From NCBI RefSeq assembly GCF_000317895.1, contig NC_019567.1, positions 1,550,001-1,614,000 on the forward strand: a DNA stretch of 64,000 nucleotides, in the 5' to 3' direction. This stretch comes from Bdellovibrio bacteriovorus str. Tiberius. Its GTDB lineage: Bacteria > Bdellovibrionota > Bdellovibrionia > Bdellovibrionales > Bdellovibrionaceae. How positions within the stretch are numbered: the stretch's first letter is position 1; every line of letters starts with the position of its first letter. Below the pieces are notes generated by a model. The model was not told the origin of the DNA and searched no databases. It saw only the letters and a list, made by a program, of their open reading frames with translations. The position numbers and the translations under genes are program-made. Below are positions 28,197-44,761 of this stretch, piece by piece.

Positions 28197-29220
28197 AAAA
28201 TGCCGGGCGTTGTGGCCTGACCACAAGTTGGGATTGGTTTGCCGTAAAGGGCTGGGCGACTTCTTCGTCAAAGCCGGTATCGTTGATCACGTCTATGAAA
28301 TCGAAAAGGGCAGGAAAGACACCTATGCCCGTATTATCGAATCCCTGCGATCTGAAACTGTTGATCATTTGATTTCTCCGCATGAATCCATGCGCACGGT
28401 TTTGTTTTGCGCGCAGATTAAGGCCGCTCATAAAATCTCTTATAAAAACGCCTGGAACTTTCTGGCATTCCAAACCCGTGTAAAACGCGACGTGCGTCTG
28501 CCGGATGCGATGAGACAGCTCAGCCTTTTGGCGCCGTTTGATCCTGAATTGAAAAAGAACATCGAAGACTATGTCAGCCGCGCGAAACCTTATTTGCCGG
28601 CCGATCACGGTCATTTGCCAGCGCCGCCGGAATGGGCGTCCATGAGTCAGCGTGAAAAAGTGCTGGCACATTCTGAGTTGTTTCATCAGTTAAAATCCAA
28701 ATTCAACCTTCAGGGGTTTGAAGACGGTAAAGCCGTTTTAATCTTCCCAGGCAGCGTGTGGGCAACCAAACGCTGGACGGAAGAGGGCTTTATCGGCGTT
28801 GGCAAGGCGCTCAAAGAACAAGGCTATGAAGTCTATGTGATGGGTGGCCCCGGCGAAGAAACCCTGTCAGAACGAGTGGCAGCGGGTATTCCGGGTTCGG
28901 TGTCCTTGGCTGGTAAAACCAAGATCATCGAGTCGGCCCAGTTGATTGCACGCGCAGCTTTGCTGGTCGGAAACGACAGTGCTTCCACGCATTTGGCAGC
29001 GGTGTGTGAAACACCGTTGATTGCGGTGTTTGGTCCAACGATTTTGGAATTTGGCTATCGCCCGTGGTCAGCACAGTCTTTTGTCGTCCAGAAAGAGGAC
29101 CTGCGCTGTCGACCTTGCGGCAAGCATGGCCACAAGGTCTGTCCGATTAAAACCCATGTGTGTATGAAGGACATTCCCGCCGAGGAAGTCCTTCGTACGG
29201 CCGGGTTTATTCTTCGTTAG
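28129..29220 (+). CDS. Glycosyltransferase family 9 (heptosyltransferase-like)
   Basis: A 363-residue second GT9 protein beginning MPLNLVVQTAFLGDLLLSIP, the normal N-terminus of ADP-heptose:LPS heptosyltransferases, so the 68-base overlap with the preceding gene appears real. Other segments are ILFPGSVWATKRWTEEGF-like (here LIFPGSVWATKRWTEEGFIG), VMGGPGEE, LIARAALLVGNDSASTHLA and the C-terminal CRPCGKHGHKVCPIKTHVC cluster. It probably acts with the first GT9 enzyme in LPS core assembly. Its stop overlaps the convergent response-regulator gene by 14 bases. Confidence 0.9.
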   Translation: MPLNLVVQTAFLGDLLLSIPLLKKCRALWPDHKLGLVCRKGLGDFFVKAGIVDHVYEIEKGRKDTYARIIESLRSETVDHLISPHESMRTVLFCAQIKAAHKISYKNAWNFLAFQTRVKRDVRLPDAMRQLSLLAPFDPELKKNIEDYVSRAKPYLPADHGHLPAPPEWASMSQREKVLAHSELFHQLKSKFNLQGFEDGKAVLIFPGSVWATKRWTEEGFIGVGKALKEQGYEVYVMGGPGEETLSERVAAGIPGSVSLAGKTKIIESAQLIARAALLVGNDSASTHLAAVCETPLIAVFGPTILEFGYRPWSAQSFVVQKEDLRCRPCGKHGHKVCPIKTHVCMKDIPAEEVLRTAGFILR

Positions 29221-30619
29221 TGTATTCTTTCACATTGATACCGTACTTGCGGATCTTGCGCAGCAGGGTGTTCTTCGGAATATTCGCCTGGGCCACGGTC
29301 TGATTGATACGACCGTTGTTGGCTTTCAAAGCACTGACGATAAATTCCTTTTCCATCTCTTCTTTGAAGGCGTCAAAGTCCAGCGGGCCGGAATAACCAA
29401 CACTCGCAGTTTTGTCAGCTCCGTCTTTCGGCGCAAGCTTAATGGAATCCGGCAGTGAATCCACCGTGATCTGGTGGCTGTTTTCCACGATGAAAGAGCG
29501 CTCGATGATGTTTTCAAGCTCCCGGATGTTTCCCGGCCAGCGATATGATTTCAGCATGTCCAAAGCTTCCGGAGTGATCGCGGTGATCTGACGGCCGTGT
29601 TGTTTCGAGAATTTTTTAATAAAGTTGCCAGCCAGCGCCTCGATGTCGTCAGAACGCTCACGCAAAGGCGGCAGGAAGATTGGCATCACGTTCAGGCGAT
29701 AGAACAAGTCCTCGCGGAATTCGCCTTCTTCCATCATCTTTTCCAGGTTGCGGTTGGTGGCGGCAATAATACGGGTTGTGGTTTTGACTTCACGGTTGCT
29801 GCCCACCGGGGTGAACTTGCGCTCTTGCAGAACACGCAATAGTTTTACCTGCATGTCGGGGCGAAGCTCGCCGATTTCATCCAGGAACAAAGTTCCGTTG
29901 TTGGCCAGCTGGAATTTGCCGATTTTACGTTCCACAGCACCAGTGAAGGCCCCTTTTTCGTGGCCGAACAATTCACTTTCCATCAGGCTTTCAGGGATCG
30001 CCCCGCAGTTGATGGCAACAAAGGCTCCGGATTTTCTAGGGGAGTTGAAGTGAATCGCGCGGGCGACCAGTTCTTTGCCGGTTCCGTTTTCACCACGCAC
30101 CAGAACCGTCGTGTCGACTTTGCACAGACGGTAGATCAGGTTGAAGACCTCTTTCATTTTGGAAGAGCCACCTACGATCTCGGATTCAATATCGTCGTCG
30201 AACACGGGATTGGACATCGCCAAAGATGAAATCAGATCGCGCGCCTCAAGGCTTTTACGCACGATTTCGGCCAGTTGCTGTGGTTGAACTGGTTTTTCAA
30301 CATAGTCGTAAGCGCCTTCTTTGATCGCCACAACGGCGTCATGAAGGTTTGAGTGTGCCGTCATCAAAACGACGAAGGTGCGAGGATCGTGTTCCTTGAT
30401 TGCGGTCAACGCTTCAAGGCCGTTCATTTCCGGCATCTTCACGTCCATCAGAACCAGATCCCACTGCTGAAGTTTCACCTTGTCCAGGGCCTCTTTGCCT
30501 GTGGCGGCCTCTTCGATGGTGAATTCAATTTCGGGCATGGTGGATTTCAGGATCGAAATCACCGAACGGCGCAGTTCGGCCTCGTCATCAACAATCAGTG
30601 TGTGGAGCTTATTGATCAT
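29207..30619 (-). CDS. NtrC-family sigma54 response regulator
   Basis: A 470-residue regulator with three domains. The receiver (residues 1-125) has IVDDEAELR, the phosphoacceptor in LVLMDVKMPEMNG and the VEKPVQ lysine. The AAA+ sigma54-interaction domain (about 145-380) has GENGTGKE, GAFTGA and FLDEIGEL. The C-terminal Fis-type helix-turn-helix spans about 420-465 (ANIPKNTLLRKIRKYG). When phosphorylated it should open sigma54 promoters. It is co-translated with the CHASE2 kinase upstream (4-base ATGA overlap), so the two form a cognate pair. The target genes are not evident. Confidence 0.93.
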   Translation of the reverse strand: MINKLHTLIVDDEAELRRSVISILKSTMPEIEFTIEEAATGKEALDKVKLQQWDLVLMDVKMPEMNGLEALTAIKEHDPRTFVVLMTAHSNLHDAVVAIKEGAYDYVEKPVQPQQLAEIVRKSLEARDLISSLAMSNPVFDDDIESEIVGGSSKMKEVFNLIYRLCKVDTTVLVRGENGTGKELVARAIHFNSPRKSGAFVAINCGAIPESLMESELFGHEKGAFTGAVERKIGKFQLANNGTLFLDEIGELRPDMQVKLLRVLQERKFTPVGSNREVKTTTRIIAATNRNLEKMMEEGEFREDLFYRLNVMPIFLPPLRERSDDIEALAGNFIKKFSKQHGRQITAITPEALDMLKSYRWPGNIRELENIIERSFIVENSHQITVDSLPDSIKLAPKDGADKTASVGYSGPLDFDAFKEEMEKEFIVSALKANNGRINQTVAQANIPKNTLLRKIRKYGINVKEYTNEE

Positions 30620-32484
30620 ACTAACACCTCGTCTTCTTCAGCATCCAGCGGCAGGGTGAAGGCAACAGTGGTCCCAAGGCCCACTTTACTTTCCATCGTC
30701 ACTTTGCCGCCATGGAGTTCAATAAAATATTTAACCAGATAAAGCCCAAGGCCGGTTCCCTTGGTGCGCAGATCCTGATCGGAACCGCGCGTGAATTTGC
30801 CCCAGACCTTTTCCATGTCCTCGGGCTTGATCCCTTCTCCGGTGTCCTTGACCAGGACATGCACGAACTCTTCGGATTCGTGCGAGATCACTTCGATCTG
30901 ACCGCCTGCGGGCGTGTACTTGATCGCATTTTCAATCAGATTGATCACAACCTCTTTCAAAAGGGTGGTGTCAAACTCGACAGAGAACATTGGTTCCAGA
31001 GCCGTGTGAATCTGGATGCCTCGTTCCCGGGCCAGTGGGCGCAGGTGCTGCAGGGCCTCTTCGATGATCTCGTTGATGTCGGCGACCTCTTTGTTGATTT
31101 TGAAGTCACGGGACTCGACACGCAGAACCTTCAGGATGGACTGGATATAACGATTCAGTTCATCACTGAACAGGCGCAGGGATTTTAGATCCTGTCCCAA
31201 TTCAGTTTCCTGCGCATGCTGGGTCATCAGGCGGTCGACGATGGCCTGAATCTTCGCAATCGGGGTTTTCAGGTCATGGGAAATCAGACTGACGAAGTTG
31301 TTTTTCAATTGCTCCAGCTGCGCCAGATATTCCTGCTCTTGTTGCAGGTGGAAGTTCTGGCGTTCAATCTTGGTGGCCTGATAACCGATGAAGATGATCC
31401 AGCTTGTTCCCAGCAACACGAAAGGCGAAAACGCCGGGGACCAGAAATAGAATGTGTCAAAGACCCAGGCTGACAACGCCGCCAGCAACGTCCCGATCCA
31501 AAGAATAAAGAACAGCGCCACGGACTGCGGATAGGTGGTGATTACAAAGACCGCCATCAGCATCAGTACAAAGAACCCGGCGGCATACCAGACAAAGCTT
31601 AAACGTTTGATCCACTTGTCACCCAAAACGGTGTCGGTGATATGAGCCAGAATTTCCGTGCGCGACAAAGTCCCCATCGGGGTCATGTAAACGGGCGCGG
31701 AAGAAGTCTCTGCACCGATCAGGATGATCTTGTCGGTGAAGGCATTGGCGGGAAGCTCGTCATAAATGATTTCGCTTAAAGAGTATTGTTTAAACACGCG
31801 GGCCGAGCCGCGATAGTTGATCGCCAGTCCCGCCAGTTGGGTCGGGAACTTCTTACCCGTGATTTTTTCCACCAGGTGAGGCATCTCGGCACGTTGCGGG
31901 AACACGCGACGGACCACTCCGTCTTCGTCTCGGCGCAATTCATTGCTGCCCAGATTGTTGTGGTCGCGGTTGGTAAAGACCGGGGTCAGGATGCGTTCCA
32001 GGGAATTGGTGGTCGAGGCCCACACGATACGTGGATCCAGGAAGATGCGCTGATCTTCCGGAGTCATGCGAACGGTGCCGACGTTGTCGCCAAAGTACAG
32101 GGTCACACCGACAGATTGTGGATTCTGGCGCAGGATACGCAACAGCAGTTCAGACCACAGGGGTTTGTTCCAGAAGAAGCTGTCGGTGATGTCGGTGACT
32201 TCGCTCATGTTGTCGAGGAAGTTTGTCCGGGCATCATAGATCATCGCAAAATCGGATTGTTTGATGGTGATCAGAACGATCTGCGGGGAGGTCTTTTGGT
32301 CTCCGCGCAGTTGGAAGCGCTGGTCGTAAGACGTGATTTCATCGTTGGATAAAGCCAGGCATCCGATAAGCCAGCACAAAAGGCAACGCAGCCAAAAACC
32401 CCGGCGACGGGAGAAGAAACGAAGCAGGACTTCGAGTCGGTATAAGAGATGAGGAATGAGGCCCTTTTGCACGCGTCGCAACAT
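30616..32484 (-). CDS. CHASE2-domain sensor histidine kinase
   Basis: A 622-residue membrane kinase. After a helix at about 30-45 comes an extracytoplasmic CHASE2 domain (about 50-275: SPQIVLITIKQSDF, later FTDKIILIGAETSSAPVYMTP), then three closely spaced membrane helices (about 290-370), a HisKA domain with the phosphorylated His in LISHDLKTPIAKI (about 400), and an HATPase domain with NLIENAIKYTP, DTGEGI and GTGLGLYLVKYF. CHASE2 is an uncharacterised extracellular sensor domain usually linked to kinases and cyclases. The kinase and its sigma54 response regulator overlap by 4 bases. The upstream region faces ribF. Confidence 0.9.
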   Translation of the reverse strand: MLRRVQKGLIPHLLYRLEVLLRFFSRRRGFWLRCLLCWLIGCLALSNDEITSYDQRFQLRGDQKTSPQIVLITIKQSDFAMIYDARTNFLDNMSEVTDITDSFFWNKPLWSELLLRILRQNPQSVGVTLYFGDNVGTVRMTPEDQRIFLDPRIVWASTTNSLERILTPVFTNRDHNNLGSNELRRDEDGVVRRVFPQRAEMPHLVEKITGKKFPTQLAGLAINYRGSARVFKQYSLSEIIYDELPANAFTDKIILIGAETSSAPVYMTPMGTLSRTEILAHITDTVLGDKWIKRLSFVWYAAGFFVLMLMAVFVITTYPQSVALFFILWIGTLLAALSAWVFDTFYFWSPAFSPFVLLGTSWIIFIGYQATKIERQNFHLQQEQEYLAQLEQLKNNFVSLISHDLKTPIAKIQAIVDRLMTQHAQETELGQDLKSLRLFSDELNRYIQSILKVLRVESRDFKINKEVADINEIIEEALQHLRPLARERGIQIHTALEPMFSVEFDTTLLKEVVINLIENAIKYTPAGGQIEVISHESEEFVHVLVKDTGEGIKPEDMEKVWGKFTRGSDQDLRTKGTGLGLYLVKYFIELHGGKVTMESKVGLGTTVAFTLPLDAEEDEVLV

Positions 32485-34362: not shown

Positions 34363-36063
34363 ATGTCTTCACTCAAAATCGGGGAAATTCTAGTTAAGCA
34401 AGGTTTGCTCAAGCCTGATCAATTGGCATTGGCCATGGAAGAGCAGAAAAAAACCGGGCAGCGGCTGACGAATTCCATCATTCAACTCGGGTACTTAAAA
34501 GACAATCAGATCCTTCGCGCTGTTGAAAAACACTTCGCGGTTCCGGGGGTCGAGGTCAACACGTTTGAAATCGATGCAACCGTCATTGCAATGATTCCCA
34601 AAGATGTGTGCGAGAAAAACACATTGATCCCTCTGCAGAAAGCCGGGAACACCCTGGTTGTAGCGTTTGCGGATCCCTCTAATATTATAGTCAAAGAAGA
34701 TTTGCGTTTCATCACTCGTTGCCGCATCCAGGCGGTAGTGGGGACGGAAAGTGCCATCATGTCCGGTATTGAAAAATACTATGGCGGCAGTATCAGCACC
34801 AAGTCTTTGAACACCATGGGCGTGGGTGATGAGGATGACTTTATCCTCAGTGCCGGTCCAGCGACGGAAGTCATCGATCAGGATGGCGGGTCGGAAGACG
34901 CGCCGATCATCAAGTTCGTGAACTCGATCCTGGCCGATGCGATTCGTAAGAAAGTGTCTGATATCCACTTTGAACCTTACGAGAAAAAATACCGTGTGCG
35001 TTTCCGTATCGACGGTAACCTGGTGGAGGCGACCGCGCCTCCGGCAGGGACGGCGGCAGCGATTGCATCTCGTATTAAAATTATGTCCAAGCTGGATATC
35101 GCTGAAAAACGCCGTCCGCAGGATGGTCGTTTGAAAGTGCGAACCAAAGCCAAAGAGATGGATTTCCGTGTCAGCGTTCTGCCGACTCTTTGGGGTGAAA
35201 AAGTTGTTTTGCGTCTTTTGGATAAATCGAATTTGCAGCTGGACATGACCAAGCTGGGTTTTGAAGAGGACGATTTGAAAATCTTTAAATCCACCATCAA
35301 TCTGCCGCAAGGGATGGTTCTGATCACGGGCCCGACGGGTTCGGGTAAAACGACAACGATTTATTCCGCCTTGGCGGAACTGAATCAGCCGGATGTGAAT
35401 ATCTCCACCGCGGAAGATCCAGTGGAGTTCAACCTGGAAGGTATCAATCAGGTTCAGATGAATCCGGATATCGACCTGAATTTTTCCAGCGCTTTGAAAT
35501 CCTTCCTGCGTCAGGATCCGGATGTCGTGATGGTGGGGGAGATTCGTGACCTTGAAACTGCCGAGATCGCCTTTAAAGCGGCCTCCACGGGTCACTTGGT
35601 CGTAAGCACCCTGCACACCAACGATGCACCGGGAACGGTCATTCGTCTGACCGAAATGGGTGTGGCTCCGTATATTATCACTTCGACGGTAAATCTGATC
35701 GTGGCTCAGCGTCTGGTCGGTAAAGTCTGCGAATCCTGCAAAGCGCCGGTGGAAGTGCCAGCACAGACCCTGATGAACCTGGGCGTGCCTCAGGCTGAAA
35801 TCGGAGACTACAAACTGATGCGTGGAAAAGGTTGCGCCAATTGCAACAACACCGGCATCAAAGGCCGTCTGGCGATTTACGAATTGCTGGCAATGACCGA
35901 GAAAATGAAAGAGGCCATCTTGAAAGGTGCCTCGACCGGTCAGCTTCGCTTCCTGGCCCGTGAACAGGGGATGAGAACCCTGCGCCGAAGTGCGCTGTTA
36001 AAGTTAAAACGTGGCGTAACAACTATTGAAGAAGTGCTCAACGCATCAGTGAAGGACACCTAA
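34363..36063 (+). CDS. pilB: Type IV pilus assembly ATPase PilB (GspE family)
   Basis: A 566-residue ATPase: an N-terminal MshEN/T2SSE_N domain (LKIGEILVKQGLLKPDQLALA), then the GspE core with Walker A GPTGSGKTTTIYS, the Asp box AEDPVEFNLEGINQVQ, Walker B PDVVMVGEIRDLETAEIA and His box STLHTNDAPGTVIRL. The zinc-binding tetracysteine is CESC plus CANCNNTG. It drives pilus extension. The gene order pilB, pilT-like, pilC, pilS, pilR that follows identifies it as pilB and not a type II secretion ATPase. Its stop overlaps the next start by one base. Confidence 0.93.
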   Translation: MSSLKIGEILVKQGLLKPDQLALAMEEQKKTGQRLTNSIIQLGYLKDNQILRAVEKHFAVPGVEVNTFEIDATVIAMIPKDVCEKNTLIPLQKAGNTLVVAFADPSNIIVKEDLRFITRCRIQAVVGTESAIMSGIEKYYGGSISTKSLNTMGVGDEDDFILSAGPATEVIDQDGGSEDAPIIKFVNSILADAIRKKVSDIHFEPYEKKYRVRFRIDGNLVEATAPPAGTAAAIASRIKIMSKLDIAEKRRPQDGRLKVRTKAKEMDFRVSVLPTLWGEKVVLRLLDKSNLQLDMTKLGFEEDDLKIFKSTINLPQGMVLITGPTGSGKTTTIYSALAELNQPDVNISTAEDPVEFNLEGINQVQMNPDIDLNFSSALKSFLRQDPDVVMVGEIRDLETAEIAFKAASTGHLVVSTLHTNDAPGTVIRLTEMGVAPYIITSTVNLIVAQRLVGKVCESCKAPVEVPAQTLMNLGVPQAEIGDYKLMRGKGCANCNNTGIKGRLAIYELLAMTEKMKEAILKGASTGQLRFLAREQGMRTLRRSALLKLKRGVTTIEEVLNASVKDT

Positions 36064-37106
36064 TGAGTCTGACCGAGCTCCTTTTGCAGGCCAAAGCCAA
36101 AAAAGCGGAAGAATTTTTGTTTGTTGTCGGCAGTGAGCCGCGTGCTCGTCTGGCCTCGGGCTGGACAAGTCTGCGCACGTCACCTGCGTTGATGACGGAG
36201 TGGAATCTTTTGCAGCAAAGCCTGCTCAGCACCCAGCAAAAAGCGGTGCTTGAAACCACGGGTGTGGTTCAGGGGGAAGCGGCGCTGGATACATTGCGCA
36301 TTGGTTTTTCCTTCTTCCAGCAGGACAGCACCATGAAAGCTGTTTTGGACATGGATCTTGACGGTGGAAAGCAGGAGGTGGCACTGCCGCCTTCTTTGCT
36401 GGAAGCGTGTCTGCGCATGAAGGGCTTGGTGCTGTTGTCCGGTCCGGGTGAAGCCGGGCAGGTGTGGGCACTGCACAGAATTCTGCAGAAAATCTCTGAT
36501 GAAAAATCGTTCCTGGGTGTGGTGTTCTCGCGCAAGGCGTTCCCGCAGGTGCGTGAATCCAAATCCTGTTATTTGTATCACACGGGTGAATTTGCGCGCC
36601 CGGAAGAAAAAGAAAGTCTGATGGCGGGTGTGGACATGGTGGTCTATGACGGCTTCCATGACGAAGATTCTTTGCTTGAAGCCCTTTCTTTGGCCGAGCA
36701 GGGTGTGTTTGTGATTTATTCCATGAAAGCGCCCTCTGTGACGAATGCCCTTCGTCGTGCGCTGTCCACATTGGGTGATCGCTTTGGTGAACACGGGGCG
36801 CCTCGTCTGGCGGAAGTGCTGACGATGGCTTCCGGTCAGTATCCGGTGGCGGGCCTGAGCGGCGAAAAGGTTTTCGCCCATGAGGTGCTTTTGATGAAAC
36901 CTCAGGTGCGTGGTCTGATTGAAGATCAGGATCTGAAGTCTTTGGAAAATCTTTTGACTCAGGCTCCGGAAAATTCCGGCATCCTGACTTTGAATCAGTC
37001 TTTGTTGCAGCATCTGATCCGTCGTCGTGTGGATTTGAAAACCGCGTTTGAAGTGTCCCGCGACCCGGACAACCTTGATCAGCTTCTTAAGAAGGTAGGT
37101 ATCTAA
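36063..37106 (+). CDS. PilT-like protein with degenerate ATPase motifs (probable pseudo-ATPase)
   Basis: A 347-residue protein in the pilT position between pilB and pilC, and similar in length to PilT. The start MSLTELLLQAKAKKAEEFLF follows PilT, but the ATP motifs are ruined. Walker A, normally GPTGSGKST, reads GPGEAGQVW at 127-135, so the lysine is Gln133. The Walker B region, normally VLVGEMRD, reads VVYDGFHD, losing the Glu. The His-box region reads YSMKAPSVTNALRRAL with no histidine. The reading frame is intact and uses normal codons, so this is a maintained protein and not a pseudogene. It may be a structural or regulatory partner of a true PilT elsewhere. Databases may simply call it PilT. 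Confidence 0.75.
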   Translation: MSLTELLLQAKAKKAEEFLFVVGSEPRARLASGWTSLRTSPALMTEWNLLQQSLLSTQQKAVLETTGVVQGEAALDTLRIGFSFFQQDSTMKAVLDMDLDGGKQEVALPPSLLEACLRMKGLVLLSGPGEAGQVWALHRILQKISDEKSFLGVVFSRKAFPQVRESKSCYLYHTGEFARPEEKESLMAGVDMVVYDGFHDEDSLLEALSLAEQGVFVIYSMKAPSVTNALRRALSTLGDRFGEHGAPRLAEVLTMASGQYPVAGLSGEKVFAHEVLLMKPQVRGLIEDQDLKSLENLLTQAPENSGILTLNQSLLQHLIRRRVDLKTAFEVSRDPDNLDQLLKKVGI

Positions 37107-37107
37107 G

Positions 37108-38325
37108 ATGGCAAAATTCCAGTATCAGGCCAAGAATGCCTCTGGCCAAATGGTTCAGGGCGAGATCGAAGCGGCTTCCCAGCAGGAGGCCATCATCCGT
37201 CTGCGTGCCCAGCAGCTTTTGCCGGTTCGAGTGGTGGCCTTTGGTGCTTCACGTGCTTCTGCGGGGAAAACTCCGAGTTTGTTTGCTCCGACCGTAAAGG
37301 GTAAAGACCTGCAGATTTTCACCCGTCAGTTTGCAACTTTGATCAACGCCGGTATCCCGGTGGTGGATTCTTTGAAAATCCTTTCAGAAGGTTTGCGCCC
37401 GGGTCTTTTGAAGGAAGCTTCTGCCCAGGTAAAAACCTCGATCGAGGGCGGTCGTCGTCTGGCCGATTCCATGGCGCAGGTTCCAAACGTATTTGATAAA
37501 TTGTATGTGAATATGATCCAGGCGGGCGAAGAAGCCGGTATCCTTGACGGGATCCTGCAGCGTCTTGCGAGCTATATGGAAAAATCCGAGAAAATCAAAG
37601 CCCAGGTAAAAGGGGCCCTGGTTTATCCGATGGTCATCATCTGCGTGGCGATGATTGTCATCGCCGGTATTCTGGTTTTCATTATTCCGAAGTTCATGGA
37701 GTTCTTCGCCGGATCCGGTAAAGAGCCACCAATGCTGACGTTGATGGTGGTGAACCTCAGTAACTCGATGATCAACAACTGGTATCTTTACCTGGGTGCG
37801 ATGGTGATCGGGCCGATGGCCCTGATGCAGTGGCTGAAAACAGATGGCGGTAAAGACGCCTTTGACCGTTTCATCATGAAAGCACCGGTGTTCGGTGAAG
37901 TGGTGCAAAAATCCGCGATCGCGCGTTTGACACGTACATTGTCGACGCTGCTTTCTTCGGGTGTGGGCCTGATTGAAGCGATTGAGATTTCTGCAAAGAC
38001 CGCGGGTAACGTGGTGATTGAGCAGTCTTTGCTTCGTTGCAAAGAGTCAGTGACTGCGGGTCGTACTTTTGCTTCTCCGTTGGCGAAGGAAAAAGCTTTC
38101 CCTGAGATGGTGGTTCAGATGATCTCTATCGGGGAACAATCCGGTACGATGGATATCATGTTGGGTAAAATTGCAGACTTCTATGAAGATGAAGTTGAAA
38201 CAGCAGTTAAAGCGATGACCTCTTTGCTGGAGCCACTATTGATGGTTGTTCTGGGTGGTATCATCGCGGTTCTGGTTGTGGCGATGTATCTTCCGATCTT
38301 CAACATGGCGGATGTGGTTCAATAG
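37108..38325 (+). CDS. pilC: Type IV pilus inner-membrane platform protein PilC
   Basis: A 405-residue GspF-family protein with the N-terminal FQYQAKNASGQMVQGEIEA segment, two T2SSF repeats (TRQFATLINAGIPVVDSLKIL at about 72-92 and LTRTLSTLLSSGVGLIEAIEI in the second half), and three membrane helices (about 172-195, 225-240, 378-400, the last VLGGIIAVLVVAMYLPIF). The second repeat ends with the family's MISIGEQSGTMDIML. It is the rotary or platform partner of PilB. It begins 1 base after the pilT-like stop and abuts pilS. Confidence 0.95.
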   Translation: MAKFQYQAKNASGQMVQGEIEAASQQEAIIRLRAQQLLPVRVVAFGASRASAGKTPSLFAPTVKGKDLQIFTRQFATLINAGIPVVDSLKILSEGLRPGLLKEASAQVKTSIEGGRRLADSMAQVPNVFDKLYVNMIQAGEEAGILDGILQRLASYMEKSEKIKAQVKGALVYPMVIICVAMIVIAGILVFIIPKFMEFFAGSGKEPPMLTLMVVNLSNSMINNWYLYLGAMVIGPMALMQWLKTDGGKDAFDRFIMKAPVFGEVVQKSAIARLTRTLSTLLSSGVGLIEAIEISAKTAGNVVIEQSLLRCKESVTAGRTFASPLAKEKAFPEMVVQMISIGEQSGTMDIMLGKIADFYEDEVETAVKAMTSLLEPLLMVVLGGIIAVLVVAMYLPIFNMADVVQ

Positions 38326-39903
38326 ATGCGTTTAAGTTTTGCTTTGCAGAACAGTAAAAATCAGGGGCTGACGGTGGAATTTACCCGCGTCAGCCTTTTT
38401 GCGTTGATTTTGCTGATCAGTGCGGTTTCCAGTGTGTTTCAGGAAGGTTTCATCAACTGGCAGATTCTGGGTCCGTTTTACGCGATCCTGAGTGTGGCCT
38501 TTGGCGCCCATGTGTTGTGGTTCTCGACGTGGGACCGGCTGCTGCAGAAACCGTGGCTTTTGTTCGCGGGCTTCGTTGTTGATTCCCTGCTGATTTCTTT
38601 TTTGATTTATTATTCCGGGATCAATCAGTCCCTGTTCTTGTTCCTGCACCTGGTGAATATCCTGCTGGCGGGAATTGCCTGTCGTGGTGTGGGGGCGGTG
38701 ACGCTGGCCCTGTTCACGAGCATCTTCTTTACGGTGGCAGCGCTGTTCTCGCCGGAAATGAAGGCGTTGAACTTCTTCTTCCTGCTGGCTTTGAATAACA
38801 TCGCGTTTTTCTCGGTCGCGGGGCTGTCTGGATACCTGAGTGAGCAGTTGCAATCCGTCGGGAAAGAGCTTTCCGAAACGGGTGCAAGTCTTCGTTCTGC
38901 TCAGGAATTGAATGAAGTGCTGGTCGAAAATATTCCGACGGGGATGGTGTCCTTTACTGAATCCGGAGAGGTGGTGAAAGCCAACTCTTCTGCGGCCGAA
39001 ATTCTGGGTTATTCTGATCTGTCCACTTTGAACTGGTATGAGCTGTTCCCGGAAACGCGCCGATCTGAAGGGCTGTTCAAGGGCGATGTGAAGTACACGC
39101 CCAGGAACGATGCCAATGCGAAGATTCTGGGTATGACTTTGTCAAAGATCTATAGTCCCGAATTGAAAGCGCATTTGTCCATCGGGCTTTTTGATGATCT
39201 GACAAAGATTCGCCAGCTTGAATATGCTGCCAGACAGAATGAAAAGCTCGCAGCCGTGGGTGGTTTGGCGGCGGGGATTGCCCATGAAATCCGCAATCCA
39301 TTGGCGGGTATCAGTGGCAGTATCGAGCTTTTAAGTCAGACGGTGAACAATGACGATGACCGCAAGCTGATGAAAATCGTTTTGCGTGAAATCGACCGTT
39401 TGAACAACCTGATCACTGAATTCCTGGATTACGCACGCCCGGAAGTTCCACCGACAGATGCCGTGGACCTTTCCGCGTTGCTGACAGAAGTTCTGGATTC
39501 GATGAAACTCAATGCCCAGGTCCGTGCCGACACTGAACAGGTGCGTGAGTTTGAACCAGGTCTGCAAATCCTGGGTCGCCGGGACAAGTTGAAGCAGGCT
39601 TTCCTGAACATCATCATCAATTCCTATCAGGCTATGAATGATTCTCAGAAACCGCAGATTGCGGTGAAAGCTCTGGTCACTGACAAAGAGGTGCGCGTGC
39701 GCATTCGCGATGCCGGCTGTGGCATGAGTGAGGCAACTCGCAAGAAGATGTTTGAACCTTTCCATACGACCAAACCCAAGGGCACAGGCCTTGGTCTAGC
39801 TGTGACTCATAAGATTTTAGAGGGTCACGGGGCGCAGGTGTTCGTGGAAAGTGAAGTGGGCGTAGGTACTGAGTTTATTTTGACTTTCCCCAGAGCACAC
39901 TGA
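38326..39903 (+). CDS. pilS: Sensor histidine kinase PilS
   Basis: A 525-residue membrane kinase: about six N-terminal transmembrane helices (residues 20-170), a PAS domain (about 190-290, NIPTGMVSFTESGEVVKANS), a HisKA domain with GGLAAGIAHEIRNPLAGISG (phosphorylated His near 320) and an HATPase with DAGCGMSEATR and GTGLGLAVTHKIL. The six-helix bundle plus PAS is the PilS layout; in Pseudomonas, PilS senses PilA in the membrane and controls pilin transcription through PilR. It starts immediately after the pilC stop. Confidence 0.92.
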   Translation: MRLSFALQNSKNQGLTVEFTRVSLFALILLISAVSSVFQEGFINWQILGPFYAILSVAFGAHVLWFSTWDRLLQKPWLLFAGFVVDSLLISFLIYYSGINQSLFLFLHLVNILLAGIACRGVGAVTLALFTSIFFTVAALFSPEMKALNFFFLLALNNIAFFSVAGLSGYLSEQLQSVGKELSETGASLRSAQELNEVLVENIPTGMVSFTESGEVVKANSSAAEILGYSDLSTLNWYELFPETRRSEGLFKGDVKYTPRNDANAKILGMTLSKIYSPELKAHLSIGLFDDLTKIRQLEYAARQNEKLAAVGGLAAGIAHEIRNPLAGISGSIELLSQTVNNDDDRKLMKIVLREIDRLNNLITEFLDYARPEVPPTDAVDLSALLTEVLDSMKLNAQVRADTEQVREFEPGLQILGRRDKLKQAFLNIIINSYQAMNDSQKPQIAVKALVTDKEVRVRIRDAGCGMSEATRKKMFEPFHTTKPKGTGLGLAVTHKILEGHGAQVFVESEVGVGTEFILTFPRAH

Positions 39904-41458: not shown

Positions 41459-41477
41459 GAAAACGATTATCAAGTTT
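41459..41477 (+). promoter_or_regulatory. Possible Fur-type operator upstream of the ferritin gene
   Basis: GAAAACGATTATCAAGTTT resembles the Fur-box core (AATGATTATCATT) and is followed by a second TGATTATTCTCA. It lies about 75-90 bases before the ferritin ATG in the only gap between the pil terminator and that gene. Iron control of an iron-storage gene is expected, but the match is imperfect. Confidence 0.4.
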
Positions 41478-41550
41478 GATTATTCTCAATACGTTTTCAT
41501 TTGTTGCTTTGGCTGCCCGATTCTGCAATCATTCGGGGGGTGGAGGTCTT

Positions 41551-41979
41551 ATGACTAAAGAAAACAAAAAAGTAGTAGATCTTTTGAATGAAATTATCGA
41601 GATGGAGATCTCTGGCGTTGTTCGTTACTTGCACTATGCATTGATGGTGAAAGGTCCGAACCGCATTCCAATCGTTAAATGGTTCCATGAGCAGGCTAAC
41701 GAAGGTTACCAGCACGCGTCCCTGATGGGCGAAAAAGTGACAGCTTTGGGCGGTCACCCAACTTTGCGTGTGTCGGCGGTTCCGGAAACTAAAACTCACA
41801 AGGTTTTGGACATTTTGAAAGAAAGCCTAGAGTTCGAACAAGCTGCTTTGGCGAAGTACAAAGGCGTACTGAAACACTGTGGTGATGACGTTGCGTTGGA
41901 AGAACTGATCCGCTCAATGGTGCGTATGGAAACAGAGCACATTGAAGAAGTGGTTAAAATGCTGGACACCACTCACTAG
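41551..41979 (+). CDS. Bacterioferritin-like ferroxidase
   Basis: A 142-residue four-helix ferritin-like protein. Start at ATG 41551, with GGAGG upstream; the frame is open for 25 more codons that lack family character. The diiron ligands are all visible: Glu and Tyr in EMEISGVVRYLHY, Glu and His in EQANEGYQHA, Glu in ESLEFEQAA, and Glu-x-x-His in RMETEHIEEV. The haem-ligand Met of true bacterioferritin, normally just before the second ligand pair, is replaced (NEGYQHA), so it may be a haem-free member. It oxidises and stores iron or protects DNA from peroxide. Confidence 0.85.
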   Translation: MTKENKKVVDLLNEIIEMEISGVVRYLHYALMVKGPNRIPIVKWFHEQANEGYQHASLMGEKVTALGGHPTLRVSAVPETKTHKVLDILKESLEFEQAALAKYKGVLKHCGDDVALEELIRSMVRMETEHIEEVVKMLDTTH

Positions 41980-42532: not shown

Positions 42533-44761
42533 TTAGAATTCTGTGTCGAACACACCAAGAATCATGGCTTTAAAGTAGTTCCTTTTCAGGCGGTCGTCGA
42601 TCAGTCGGGAATCTTTTTTATACTGATTGTAGATATCCGTCATTTCGCGGTTATAGGCTGCGCCGTAAATCATTGCCCCGTTTTCCATGTCGTGGATGAA
42701 GCTGCGCTTGTTCAAATTGACCGACCCCAGGAATGAATACACGTCATCAATCAAAACAATTTTTGAATGCAGAATCACCTTCGGTTCAGTGTACTCATAG
42801 ATGGCAAGCTGGTGGAACAGGCGGTTCACTGCCGGTTTGCTCGATTCGCTCAGGATCCAGTCGACAGTGTCGCCCTTCAAGTCCAGACGGGTGATCACGG
42901 TGACCTGAACCCCACGGGCCGCGGCTCGTTCCAGTGCTTCTACGATAGGGGTCGGCGGGCGGAAGTACGGCGTGGAGATCATGATTTTCTTTTTCGCACT
43001 GTCGAGCATTTCCACATAGAACTGAATCAGACGTTCGTCGTCCTTGTAAGGAACCGACATAAAGTGACGCACCAGCGGTTCGCGGTTGTTGAAGTAGGAT
43101 GGGCTGGTTTGCGCTGCCATCGGCACGTTGACGTTGATGCTGCGGAATTGCATCGTTTTATAATCACGATCCCACAAGGTCAGGAAGTGCGCCGCCACTT
43201 TTTCGGTAAAATCCCTGTCGTGAACTTTGAATTCAAAATCACGCCAGTGCACGAAGCTTTCATCGCCCTTCACATAGTTGACCATTTCCGGGCGGGGATA
43301 GTCGTAAGCTTTTTTAAAGATGAAGCCATCGTGAATGTTACGTCCCCCGATGAAGGCCACGTTGTTTTTGGGCTCTTTCTTTGACAGCGTCAAAAACAGC
43401 TTCACGTGCATTGAACGGTGCAGGCGATCGAAACGGTCGCTGAGGCTGCCGCCGGATGGAACTTTGTATTTCAGTTCCTGCAGCTGGATGTTCGGATTCT
43501 GAGCTTCCAGCTTGCGCAGCAGAACTTCGTCTTTATCCAAAGTGATCACTCCGGCCACCAGGATTTTTACTTTGGTGCCGCGTTTGGCGTGGAAATCCAG
43601 CAGACGCGCCATGAAGGTTCCATAGTAGTCCGCACGGAATACCAGGTACGACACATAGATACTATCAAGGTACGGAGCCTTGGAAAAATCCAACGGAGCA
43701 TAAGGATCGTGCAGATCCATGAAGTGAGACGGAAGCGGCTGACCCAGCAGAGCTTCAGCTTTGGATTTCAGCGAGTCCACAGCTTCGGGCAAATTCACCA
43801 CCGCCGGAACCGCCTGAGGGCAGGTCATCGAGGCGTATTTGTCAGTCATGAAGAATTTTTCGATGCCAGTCAGATTGTCCGTGCGAGGCATCAGGCAGCC
43901 TTCAACCAGATTGTGCAGATCGAGATATGGATTTGCTGGTTCAACAAAGCGAACGCCGAACTGGGCTGGGACACCTGTCGGGCCGGCTTTCAGTTCGCAT
44001 GTTGTGACAGAACTTGCCGGGAGCAGGCGCAGGTTGTCGCCATTGTACTTGCTGTCGTACATCCGGAAGGTGGCTTTTTGGTTGGCCACAAATTTTTTGT
44101 CCGAGAAGGTCTTTTTGATGCGGAAGGGACCATCACAAGTCACGGTCGCCTCGAAGTGTTCGTTCTTGCGCTGTTCATTGGGATCATCAGTGCTGATCAG
44201 ATAGTTCTTGATCTGCACCTCATAGTCTTTTGCATGCATGCGGTCGAATTTGAAAATGCGCTGAATCTGGCCGTTACGAAGAGCAAATTCCGCAGCGGAA
44301 TTCATCTCAAGGCGCTGCTCTTGGGTGCGCCAGGATTCATTGTTGCTTGTTAGAACTGAAACCGGAGTGTCCGCGCGAAGTGCATTGATGCGTTGCTGAG
44401 TCAGGGCAGAGCTTTGATTCACGATTTGCAGCTGACGTTCCTGACGGGCGCTCATTTCTTTGTAGGCGCGTTCTTCCCGGGTTTCCTGAGGGAAGGAATC
44501 TTTTTTGTGTGGATGTGGAGTGGTCTGCCGTCTTTTCAGAATCAGCAGCTGTTCCTTGTTCAGTTCGGCCTGCAGGTTGTCGCTGTAAAGCTTTTGCACG
44601 TACGGGGCCACATCCGGTGGGACCTCGACAGAGCTGGGATTTCTTTGTGCCGGAGTCTGGCAGGAAATCAAAGTGAAAGAAAGAAGCAAAACACCAAGCA
44701 GCGTTCCAAAGTTTTCAGTCTTTTTCATTCTGAATTTATCGGAAAAACCTGACAAAGACAT
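42533..44761 (-). CDS. Phospholipase D-family lipoprotein
   Basis: A 742-residue lipoprotein with lipobox LISC at about residues 31-34. GGGA lies 6 bases before the ATG used here; an alternative ATG at 44728 gives a shorter signal peptide. The C-terminal half has two PLD phosphodiesterase modules: SMHVKLFLT with a following FIGGRNIHDGF, and VILHSKIVLIDDVYSFLGSVNLNKRS. Each keeps the H-x-K pair expected of cardiolipin synthase or PLD-like enzymes. The first 330 residues are unlike known PLDs. It is probably anchored to an envelope membrane and could act on phospholipids, possibly of prey. That use is inference. Confidence 0.85.
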   Translation of the reverse strand: MSLSGFSDKFRMKKTENFGTLLGVLLLSFTLISCQTPAQRNPSSVEVPPDVAPYVQKLYSDNLQAELNKEQLLILKRRQTTPHPHKKDSFPQETREERAYKEMSARQERQLQIVNQSSALTQQRINALRADTPVSVLTSNNESWRTQEQRLEMNSAAEFALRNGQIQRIFKFDRMHAKDYEVQIKNYLISTDDPNEQRKNEHFEATVTCDGPFRIKKTFSDKKFVANQKATFRMYDSKYNGDNLRLLPASSVTTCELKAGPTGVPAQFGVRFVEPANPYLDLHNLVEGCLMPRTDNLTGIEKFFMTDKYASMTCPQAVPAVVNLPEAVDSLKSKAEALLGQPLPSHFMDLHDPYAPLDFSKAPYLDSIYVSYLVFRADYYGTFMARLLDFHAKRGTKVKILVAGVITLDKDEVLLRKLEAQNPNIQLQELKYKVPSGGSLSDRFDRLHRSMHVKLFLTLSKKEPKNNVAFIGGRNIHDGFIFKKAYDYPRPEMVNYVKGDESFVHWRDFEFKVHDRDFTEKVAAHFLTLWDRDYKTMQFRSINVNVPMAAQTSPSYFNNREPLVRHFMSVPYKDDERLIQFYVEMLDSAKKKIMISTPYFRPPTPIVEALERAAARGVQVTVITRLDLKGDTVDWILSESSKPAVNRLFHQLAIYEYTEPKVILHSKIVLIDDVYSFLGSVNLNKRSFIHDMENGAMIYGAAYNREMTDIYNQYKKDSRLIDDRLKRNYFKAMILGVFDTEF

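What the first reader, a model, noticed from the sequence alone, without database searches (positions are those of the whole stretch)
36063..37106. A PilT-position protein whose ATPase motifs are all ruined
Between pilB and pilC lies an intact 347-residue gene that follows PilT in length and at the N-terminus. Walker A reads GPGEAGQVW (Gln instead of Lys), Walker B reads VVYDGFHD (Gly in place of the catalytic Glu), and the His box has no histidine. All three changes in one intact frame suggest a maintained pseudo-ATPase, perhaps a brake, an adaptor or a stabiliser of PilB/PilC or of a real PilT elsewhere. If automatic annotation calls this protein a PilT, pilus-retraction models that count it as an active retraction ATPase would be wrong.
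Basis: partly seen in the sequence, partly recalled or inferred. Interest (0 to 1): 0.72.

Follow-up and report, generated by a model that had tools for sequence, protein, structure and literature searches.

The report
Dead-motor PilT in Bdellovibrio pilus operon
The gene between pilB and pilC in this Bdellovibrio genome encodes a relative of the pilus-retraction motor PilT that has lost every residue needed to burn ATP; this was already reported for one strain, but genome comparisons here show the motor died once in the ancestor of the whole family and again in other lineages while its last ~47 residues were kept, which points to a docking or regulatory job.

Summary
Window 36063-37106 (+) encodes an intact 347-aa full-length PilT homologue. 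Walker A is GPGEAGQVW (Lys to Gln), the Walker B catalytic Glu column is Gly, and the Asp box and both His-box histidines are gone.

The gene is the PilT1 (Bd1510) position of Bdellovibrio bacteriovorus. Its missing Walker A box, deletion phenotype and failure to restore a Pseudomonas pilT mutant were published in 2010/2014 (PMC4237445). The core finding is therefore not new.

New here is a survey of the order. The protein between PilB and PilC is a canonical PilT in 55 genomes of eight other families. In the Bdellovibrio family it is catalytically ruined in all 59 surveyed genomes (19 genera) and deleted in a twentieth genus. Ruin also occurred independently elsewhere, at least three times in all. 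No intermediates were seen.

Selection within the genus is strong (dN/dS about 0.01-0.06). The last 47 residues keep 45% identity to canonical operon PilTs; the rest falls to about 20%. A separate canonical PilT2 is present in nearly every genome checked.

Best reading: a maintained pseudo-motor docking at the pilus base through its C-terminal face and tuning pilus dynamics. The pseudo-ATPase part is secure; the brake mechanism is inference.

The parts
36063..37106 (+). pilT1 (Bd1510-position gene): 347-aa catalytically degenerate PilT homologue
   Evidence: intact ORF; TIGR01420 full-length match; PDB PilT matches; orthologous and syntenic in all 24 genus genomes
36441..36467 (+). ruined Walker A site GPGEAGQVW (residues 127-135; canonical GPTGSGKST)
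   Evidence: alignment with canonical operonic PilTs and PilT2; position
36525..36551 (+). ruined Asp box FSRKAFPQV (residues 155-163; canonical VEDPIEFVH)
   Evidence: alignment
36639..36662 (+). ruined Walker B VVYDGFHD (residues 193-200; Gly in the catalytic Glu column)
   Evidence: alignment
36696..36740 (+). ruined His box EQGVFVIYSMKAPSV (residues 212-226; both His lost)
   Evidence: alignment
36897..36926 (+). AIRNLIRE-equivalent segment KPQVRGLIED (residues 279-288), partly kept
   Evidence: alignment
36963..37103 (+). preserved C-terminal tail, residues 301-347 (includes NQSLLQHLIRRRVDLKTAFEVSRDPDNLDQLLKKVGI), the only region still close to canonical operonic PilT
   Evidence: 45-48% identity against about 20% elsewhere; PilT2 lacks it
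34363..36063 (+). pilB, extension ATPase with intact motifs; stop overlaps the pilT1 start
   Evidence: T2SSE match at G000:C1:1584894-1586039
37108..38325 (+). pilC, platform protein
   Evidence: used as the synteny anchor across the order
38326..39903 (+). pilS-like sensor kinase
   Evidence: conserved order pilB-X-pilC-pilS; name follows PMC4237445
39942..41348 (+). pilR-like sigma-54 response regulator
   Evidence: name follows PMC4237445

Best explanation
(A, shown by sequence) PilT1 descends from the canonical PilT that most of the order still encodes between pilB and pilC. It lost the ATP-hydrolysis residues before the Bdellovibrio family diversified, and in Bdellovibrio itself also the P-loop. 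It is kept by selection as a pseudo-motor, while an unlinked canonical PilT2 supplies retraction. (B, inferred) PilT1 docks at the pilus base, at PilC and/or the PilB or PilT2 ring, through its preserved C-terminal tail. Because it cannot turn over ATP it does not move the pilus; it occupies or locks the base and so tunes or opposes extension and retraction, a weak brake that PilT2 works against. Confidence is about 0.93 for A and about 0.4 for B. The score given is for A and B together.
For: A: motif losses in all surveyed family members and none in 55 canonical operonic PilTs of eight other families, with no intermediates. Synteny pilB-X-pilC-pilS throughout. dN/dS about 0.01-0.06 within the genus, near PilB and PilC values. 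PilT2 with all motifs in own genome at C1:3923203-3924303 and a PilT2 relative in every genome checked but one incomplete one. A PilB tree needs at least 3 independent degenerations. B: the C-terminal 47 residues stay 45% identical to canonical operonic PilT while other regions fall to 17-21%, with the same contrast in f4 and f5 degenerates of separate origin, and PilT2 lacks this tail. Genera g2, g6 and g10 lost the whole N-domain yet keep the tail. Published genetics (PMC4237445): the pilT1 deletion preys slightly faster, cleared slightly more biofilm, and partly suppresses the pilT2-deletion biofilm defect. ATPase-dead PilT and PilU overexpressed together are dominant-negative in V. cholerae (PMC6821130).
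Against: The published effects are small, and the authors call the better predation of the pilT1 mutant not statistically significant. Piliation data conflict: the pilT1 mutant shows 8.2% piliated cells by EM against 22.3% in wild type, but 33.4% against 27.0% by immunofluorescence. The authors preferred a PilU-like stability role or protease regulation. Genus g5 lost the gene altogether, so it is dispensable there. No binding partner is known. The predicted structure is poor (mean pLDDT 49), so hexamer formation and docking are untested.
Confidence: 0.45

Rival explanations
1. Positive structural factor: PilT1 stabilises PilB/PilC or the assembled pilus (the PilU-like stability idea of Chanyi and Koval).
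For: Position and stop-start overlap in the pilB-pilC operon; fewer piliated cells by EM in the pilT1 deletion, 8.2% against 22.3%; preserved tail.
Against: Immunofluorescence shows more, not fewer, piliated cells (33.4% against 27.0%); predation is not reduced; genus g5 does without it.
Confidence: 0.25
2. Catalytically dead coupler for the active PilT2, as ATPase-dead PilT supports PilU-driven retraction in V. cholerae.
For: Precedent in PMC6821130 and PMC6762196; every genome with a degenerate PilT1 that was checked has PilT2, bar one incomplete genome; the PilU C-terminus has been modelled as contacting PilT (PMC12607626).
Against: The pilT1 deletion does not phenocopy the pilT2 deletion: biofilm left 27.9% against 92.5%, wild type 35.4%. 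Genus g5 keeps PilT2 but has no PilT1.
Confidence: 0.15
3. Decaying remnant of a redundant motor, on its way out and without present function.
For: Fast divergence outside the tail; lost in g5; N-domain lost in g2, g6 and g10.
Against: dN/dS about 0.01-0.06 in the genus; open frames in the surveyed family genomes; tail conservation in residues 316-347 equal to canonical PilT; the deletion alters phenotypes.
Confidence: 0.1
4. Residual or non-canonical ATPase despite the substitutions.
For: 25 of 64 degenerates keep GxxxxGK[S/T], so nucleotide binding is possible in those genera.
Against: The window protein lacks the P-loop Lys and Ser/Thr, catalytic Glu, Asp box and His box together.
Confidence: 0.05

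Closest known systems
PilT1 (Bd1510) of Bdellovibrio bacteriovorus HD100/109J (Mahmoud and Koval 2010; Chanyi and Koval 2014, PMC4237445)
   Same: Same gene position (pilB-pilT1-pilC-pilS-pilR) and same lack of Walker A; same species group as judged by sequence
   Different: The paper reports a Walker B box and does not describe family-wide loss, repeated independent loss, the preserved tail or the N-domain deletions
Canonical operonic PilT (PilT4 type; Geobacter PilT4 structures 5zfq and 6ojx)
   Same: Full-length homology, best PDB match by sequence and fold search; same C-terminal tail
   Different: All catalytic motifs are intact in PilT4; only about 20% identity with the window protein
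PilT2 (Bd3852; own genome C1:3923203-3924303)
   Same: PilT family
   Different: Unlinked, canonical motifs, no operonic-type tail; required for biofilm predation (PMC4237445) and attachment (PMC6561027)
PilU (accessory retraction ATPase)
   Same: Second PilT-like protein acting beside a main motor
   Different: PilU keeps its ATPase motifs and needs PilT; PilT1 has no motifs
ATPase-dead PilT point mutants (PilT K136A/E204A, V. cholerae, PMC6821130)
   Same: Inactive motor subunit that still engages the machine
   Different: Laboratory mutants; the Bdellovibrio protein is a natural, long-maintained version

Membership tests
PilT/PilU retraction ATPases (TIGR01420) | Full-length homology to PilT | tested here: met
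   E=5.2e-20, model 2-342/343; PDB PilT E to 4e-18
PilT/PilU retraction ATPases (TIGR01420) | Curated family score cut-off | tested here: not met
   71.9 bits against 319.1
PilT/PilU retraction ATPases (TIGR01420) | Walker A GxxGxGK[S/T] | tested here: not met
   GPGEAGQVW; no P-loop anywhere in the frame
PilT/PilU retraction ATPases (TIGR01420) | Walker B catalytic Glu (GE[LM]RD) | tested here: not met
   Gly in the column; MVVYD-G-FHD
PilT/PilU retraction ATPases (TIGR01420) | Asp box and His box | tested here: not met
   FSRKAFPQV; EQGVFVIYSMKAPSV
PilT/PilU retraction ATPases (TIGR01420) | AIRNLIRE motif | tested here: inconclusive
   KPQVRGLIED, partly similar in the genus, diverged in other genera
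PilT/PilU retraction ATPases (TIGR01420) | Hexameric ring and ATP-driven retraction | not testable with these tools
   poor model, pLDDT 49; published pilT1 deletion does not abolish predation
Orthologue of Bdellovibrio PilT1 (Bd1510) | pilB-X-pilC-pilS-pilR position and genus-wide orthology | tested here: met
   24 genus genomes 59-100% identical; synteny
Maintained pseudo-ATPase | Catalytic loss with intact frame and purifying selection | tested here: met
   absence of ATPase activity itself not measured
PilU | Intact ATPase motifs | tested here: not met
   no catalytic residue left

The most novel reading that the evidence does not exclude
In this order the operon-encoded PilT has been turned at least three times independently into a non-hydrolysing pseudo-motor whose best preserved element is its C-terminal tail. 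The tail would be an autonomous docking module for the pilus base. In genera that keep the P-loop the protein would be an ATP-sensing but non-hydrolysing regulator; in Bdellovibrio it would be a nucleotide-free clamp on a pilus whose retraction duty has passed to PilT2.
Probability: 0.35. Interest if true: 0.65.

Novelty: new variant of a known kind. Interest (0 to 1): 0.48.

Why it matters
The single-gene observation is already published. The family-wide picture is not in the literature searched here. If right, it means a whole family of predatory and related bacteria runs its predation pilus with a dead PilT in the operon and a live PilT elsewhere. It gives natural material for separating what PilT does as a structural part from what it does as a motor, and it points to the C-terminal 47 residues as the part to test. 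It also warns that 'pilB-pilT-pilC' synteny does not guarantee a retraction ATPase.

Tried and rejected
Foldseek ranks PilT4 first (E 2e-10) but TM-scores are about 0.3, so I used it only as support for the fold family, not for pocket or docking claims. Sequencing error or frameshift: rejected, because the same losses occur in all 24 genus genomes. A hidden P-loop in the gene's own frame: none; one chance match lies in another frame. Origin from PilT2: not supported by synteny or by the shared tail; the protein tree puts f1 degenerates as one clade (97) outside PilT2, but long branches make its deep order unreliable. Kept only as a translational spacer for pilC: rejected, because selection is at the protein level and g5 reads pilB straight into pilC with a 3-bp gap. 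Literature searches for degenerate or pseudo PilT elsewhere found nothing comparable, but most subscription papers, including the 2010 one, are not held.

Full report
WHAT IS THERE. Window 36063-37106 (+) is an intact 347-codon gene between pilB and pilC. Its ATG overlaps the pilB stop (TAATG), and pilC starts one base after its stop. It matches the PilT/PilU family model over its whole length (TIGR01420, E=5e-20, positions 2-342 of 343) but at 71.9 bits against a cut-off of 319.1. Pfam's T2SSE model does not find it. Its best solved relatives are Geobacter and Aquifex PilT. Aligned to canonical PilTs, Walker A is GPGEAGQVW, the Asp box FSRKAFPQV, Walker B MVVYDGFHD with Gly in the catalytic Glu column, and the His box has no histidine. 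No P-loop occurs elsewhere in the protein.

PRIOR KNOWLEDGE. The gene is the PilT1 position of Bdellovibrio bacteriovorus (Bd1510 in HD100). The genome is 3,988,594 bases, which from memory fits strain Tiberius. Chanyi and Koval 2014 (PMC4237445), crediting Mahmoud and Koval 2010, state that PilT1 lacks Walker A and other PilT domains, and they propose a role in regulation or stability. They made deletions. The pilT1 deletion preyed slightly faster. The share of biofilm left was 27.9% for the pilT1 deletion, 35.4% for wild type, 92.5% for the pilT2 deletion and 50.2% for the double mutant. Piliation in the pilT1 deletion was 8.2% against 22.3% by EM but 33.4% against 27.0% by immunofluorescence. 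Neither protein restored twitching to P. aeruginosa lacking PilT. A transposon screen lists Bd3852 (PilT2) among validated predation genes (PMC6561027). The central finding is therefore already published. Two details differ: the paper credits PilT1 with a Walker B box, and it looks at one species group only.

SURVEY OF THE ORDER. I used PilC as anchor and read the gene upstream of pilC in the genomes held for the order (141 genomes). Five diagnostic residues were scored: Walker A Lys, Walker B Glu, Asp-box Glu and the two His-box His. Of 119 readable proteins, 55 have all five and 64 have two or fewer; none lies between. The canonical ones fall in eight families (f2, f3, f4, f6-f10). The degenerate ones are all 59 readable members of the Bdellovibrio family f1 (19 genera), the single f5 genome, and four f4 genomes. 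In genus g5 both readable genomes have pilB directly before pilC: the gene is gone. In genera g2, g6 and g10 the protein is only 208-249 aa and abuts pilB, so the N-terminal domain has been deleted. Some degenerates (25 of 64) keep GxxxxGK[S/T], so hydrolysis residues can go before the P-loop; in Bdellovibrio both are gone.

HOW OFTEN. On a PilB tree of 94 genomes the non-canonical state needs four changes, three of them forced by well-supported branches: the f1 ancestor, f5 (G040), and f4 (G125/G127 and G126). G039 could not be placed because its PilB is cut. The protein tree has very long branches and I do not use its deep order.

WHY IT IS MAINTAINED. Within the genus dN/dS is about 0.01-0.06, similar to pilB and pilC (Nei-Gojobori, with many pairs near synonymous saturation, so only close pairs are reliable). 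Across f1 genera, identity to canonical operonic PilT is 17% in the N-domain, 20% in the core and 21% around AIRNLIRE, but 45% in residues 301-347. In that tail the degenerates are nearly as alike (48%) as canonical ones are to each other (56%). PilT2 has no such tail (14-21%). The separately arisen f4 and f5 degenerates show the same contrast (28-55% in the tail, 9-39% elsewhere). The tail also survives where the N-domain was deleted.

WHO RETRACTS THE PILUS. A canonical, unlinked PilT2 lies at C1:3923203-3924303 of this genome, and a relative of it was found in 59 of 60 genomes searched; the exception is an 88%-complete genome. All twelve further lineages checked, including those with a degenerate or lost PilT1 outside the first set, have it.

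MECHANISM. Shown: loss of the catalytic residues, selection on the protein, tail conservation, presence of PilT2. Inferred: PilT1 engages the pilus base through the C-terminal face and acts as a non-turning occupant that mildly opposes or tunes pilus dynamics. The published suppression of the pilT2 phenotype by pilT1 deletion, and the lack of any predation loss in the single pilT1 mutant, favour an antagonist over an essential coupler. The coupler precedent is real: ATPase-dead PilT lets PilU retract pili in V. cholerae, while joint overexpression of dead PilT and PilU inhibits the native motors (PMC6821130; PMC6762196). PilU's C-terminus has been modelled as contacting PilT (PMC12607626). A stabiliser role remains possible because the EM and immunofluorescence data conflict.

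LIMITS. The predicted structure is of low confidence, so nothing is claimed about pocket geometry or hexamers. Many genomes are draft; genes cut by contig ends so that the motifs are missing were left out of the counts, while one 225-aa fragment (L097) that covers the motifs was kept. Most subscription literature was not searchable.

Noticed in passing
L082 (G027) and L089 (G064): Genus g5 of the family lost pilT1 entirely; pilB is followed directly by pilC with a 3-bp gap, while PilT2 is kept.
   Followed up: yes
L042:3272-3898, L045:3086-3808, L049:3082-3831: pilT1 lacks the whole N-terminal domain (208-249 aa) in genera g2, g6 and g10, yet keeps the C-terminal tail.
   Followed up: partly
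L083:475-1497, L141, L142, L143, L056: Independent degeneration of the operonic PilT in four f4 genomes and one f5 genome; L142 still keeps the P-loop and Asp box, an apparent early stage.
   Followed up: partly
window 42533-44761 (-): 742-aa secreted, lipoprotein-like protein with two HxK-type stretches resembling the phospholipase D superfamily (by eye only).
   Followed up: no
window 29207-32484 (-): Sensor histidine kinase with a CHASE2-like front next to an NtrC-type response regulator (by eye only).
   Followed up: no
window 41476-41979 (+): 167-aa bacterioferritin-like protein just downstream of pilR (by eye only).
   Followed up: no
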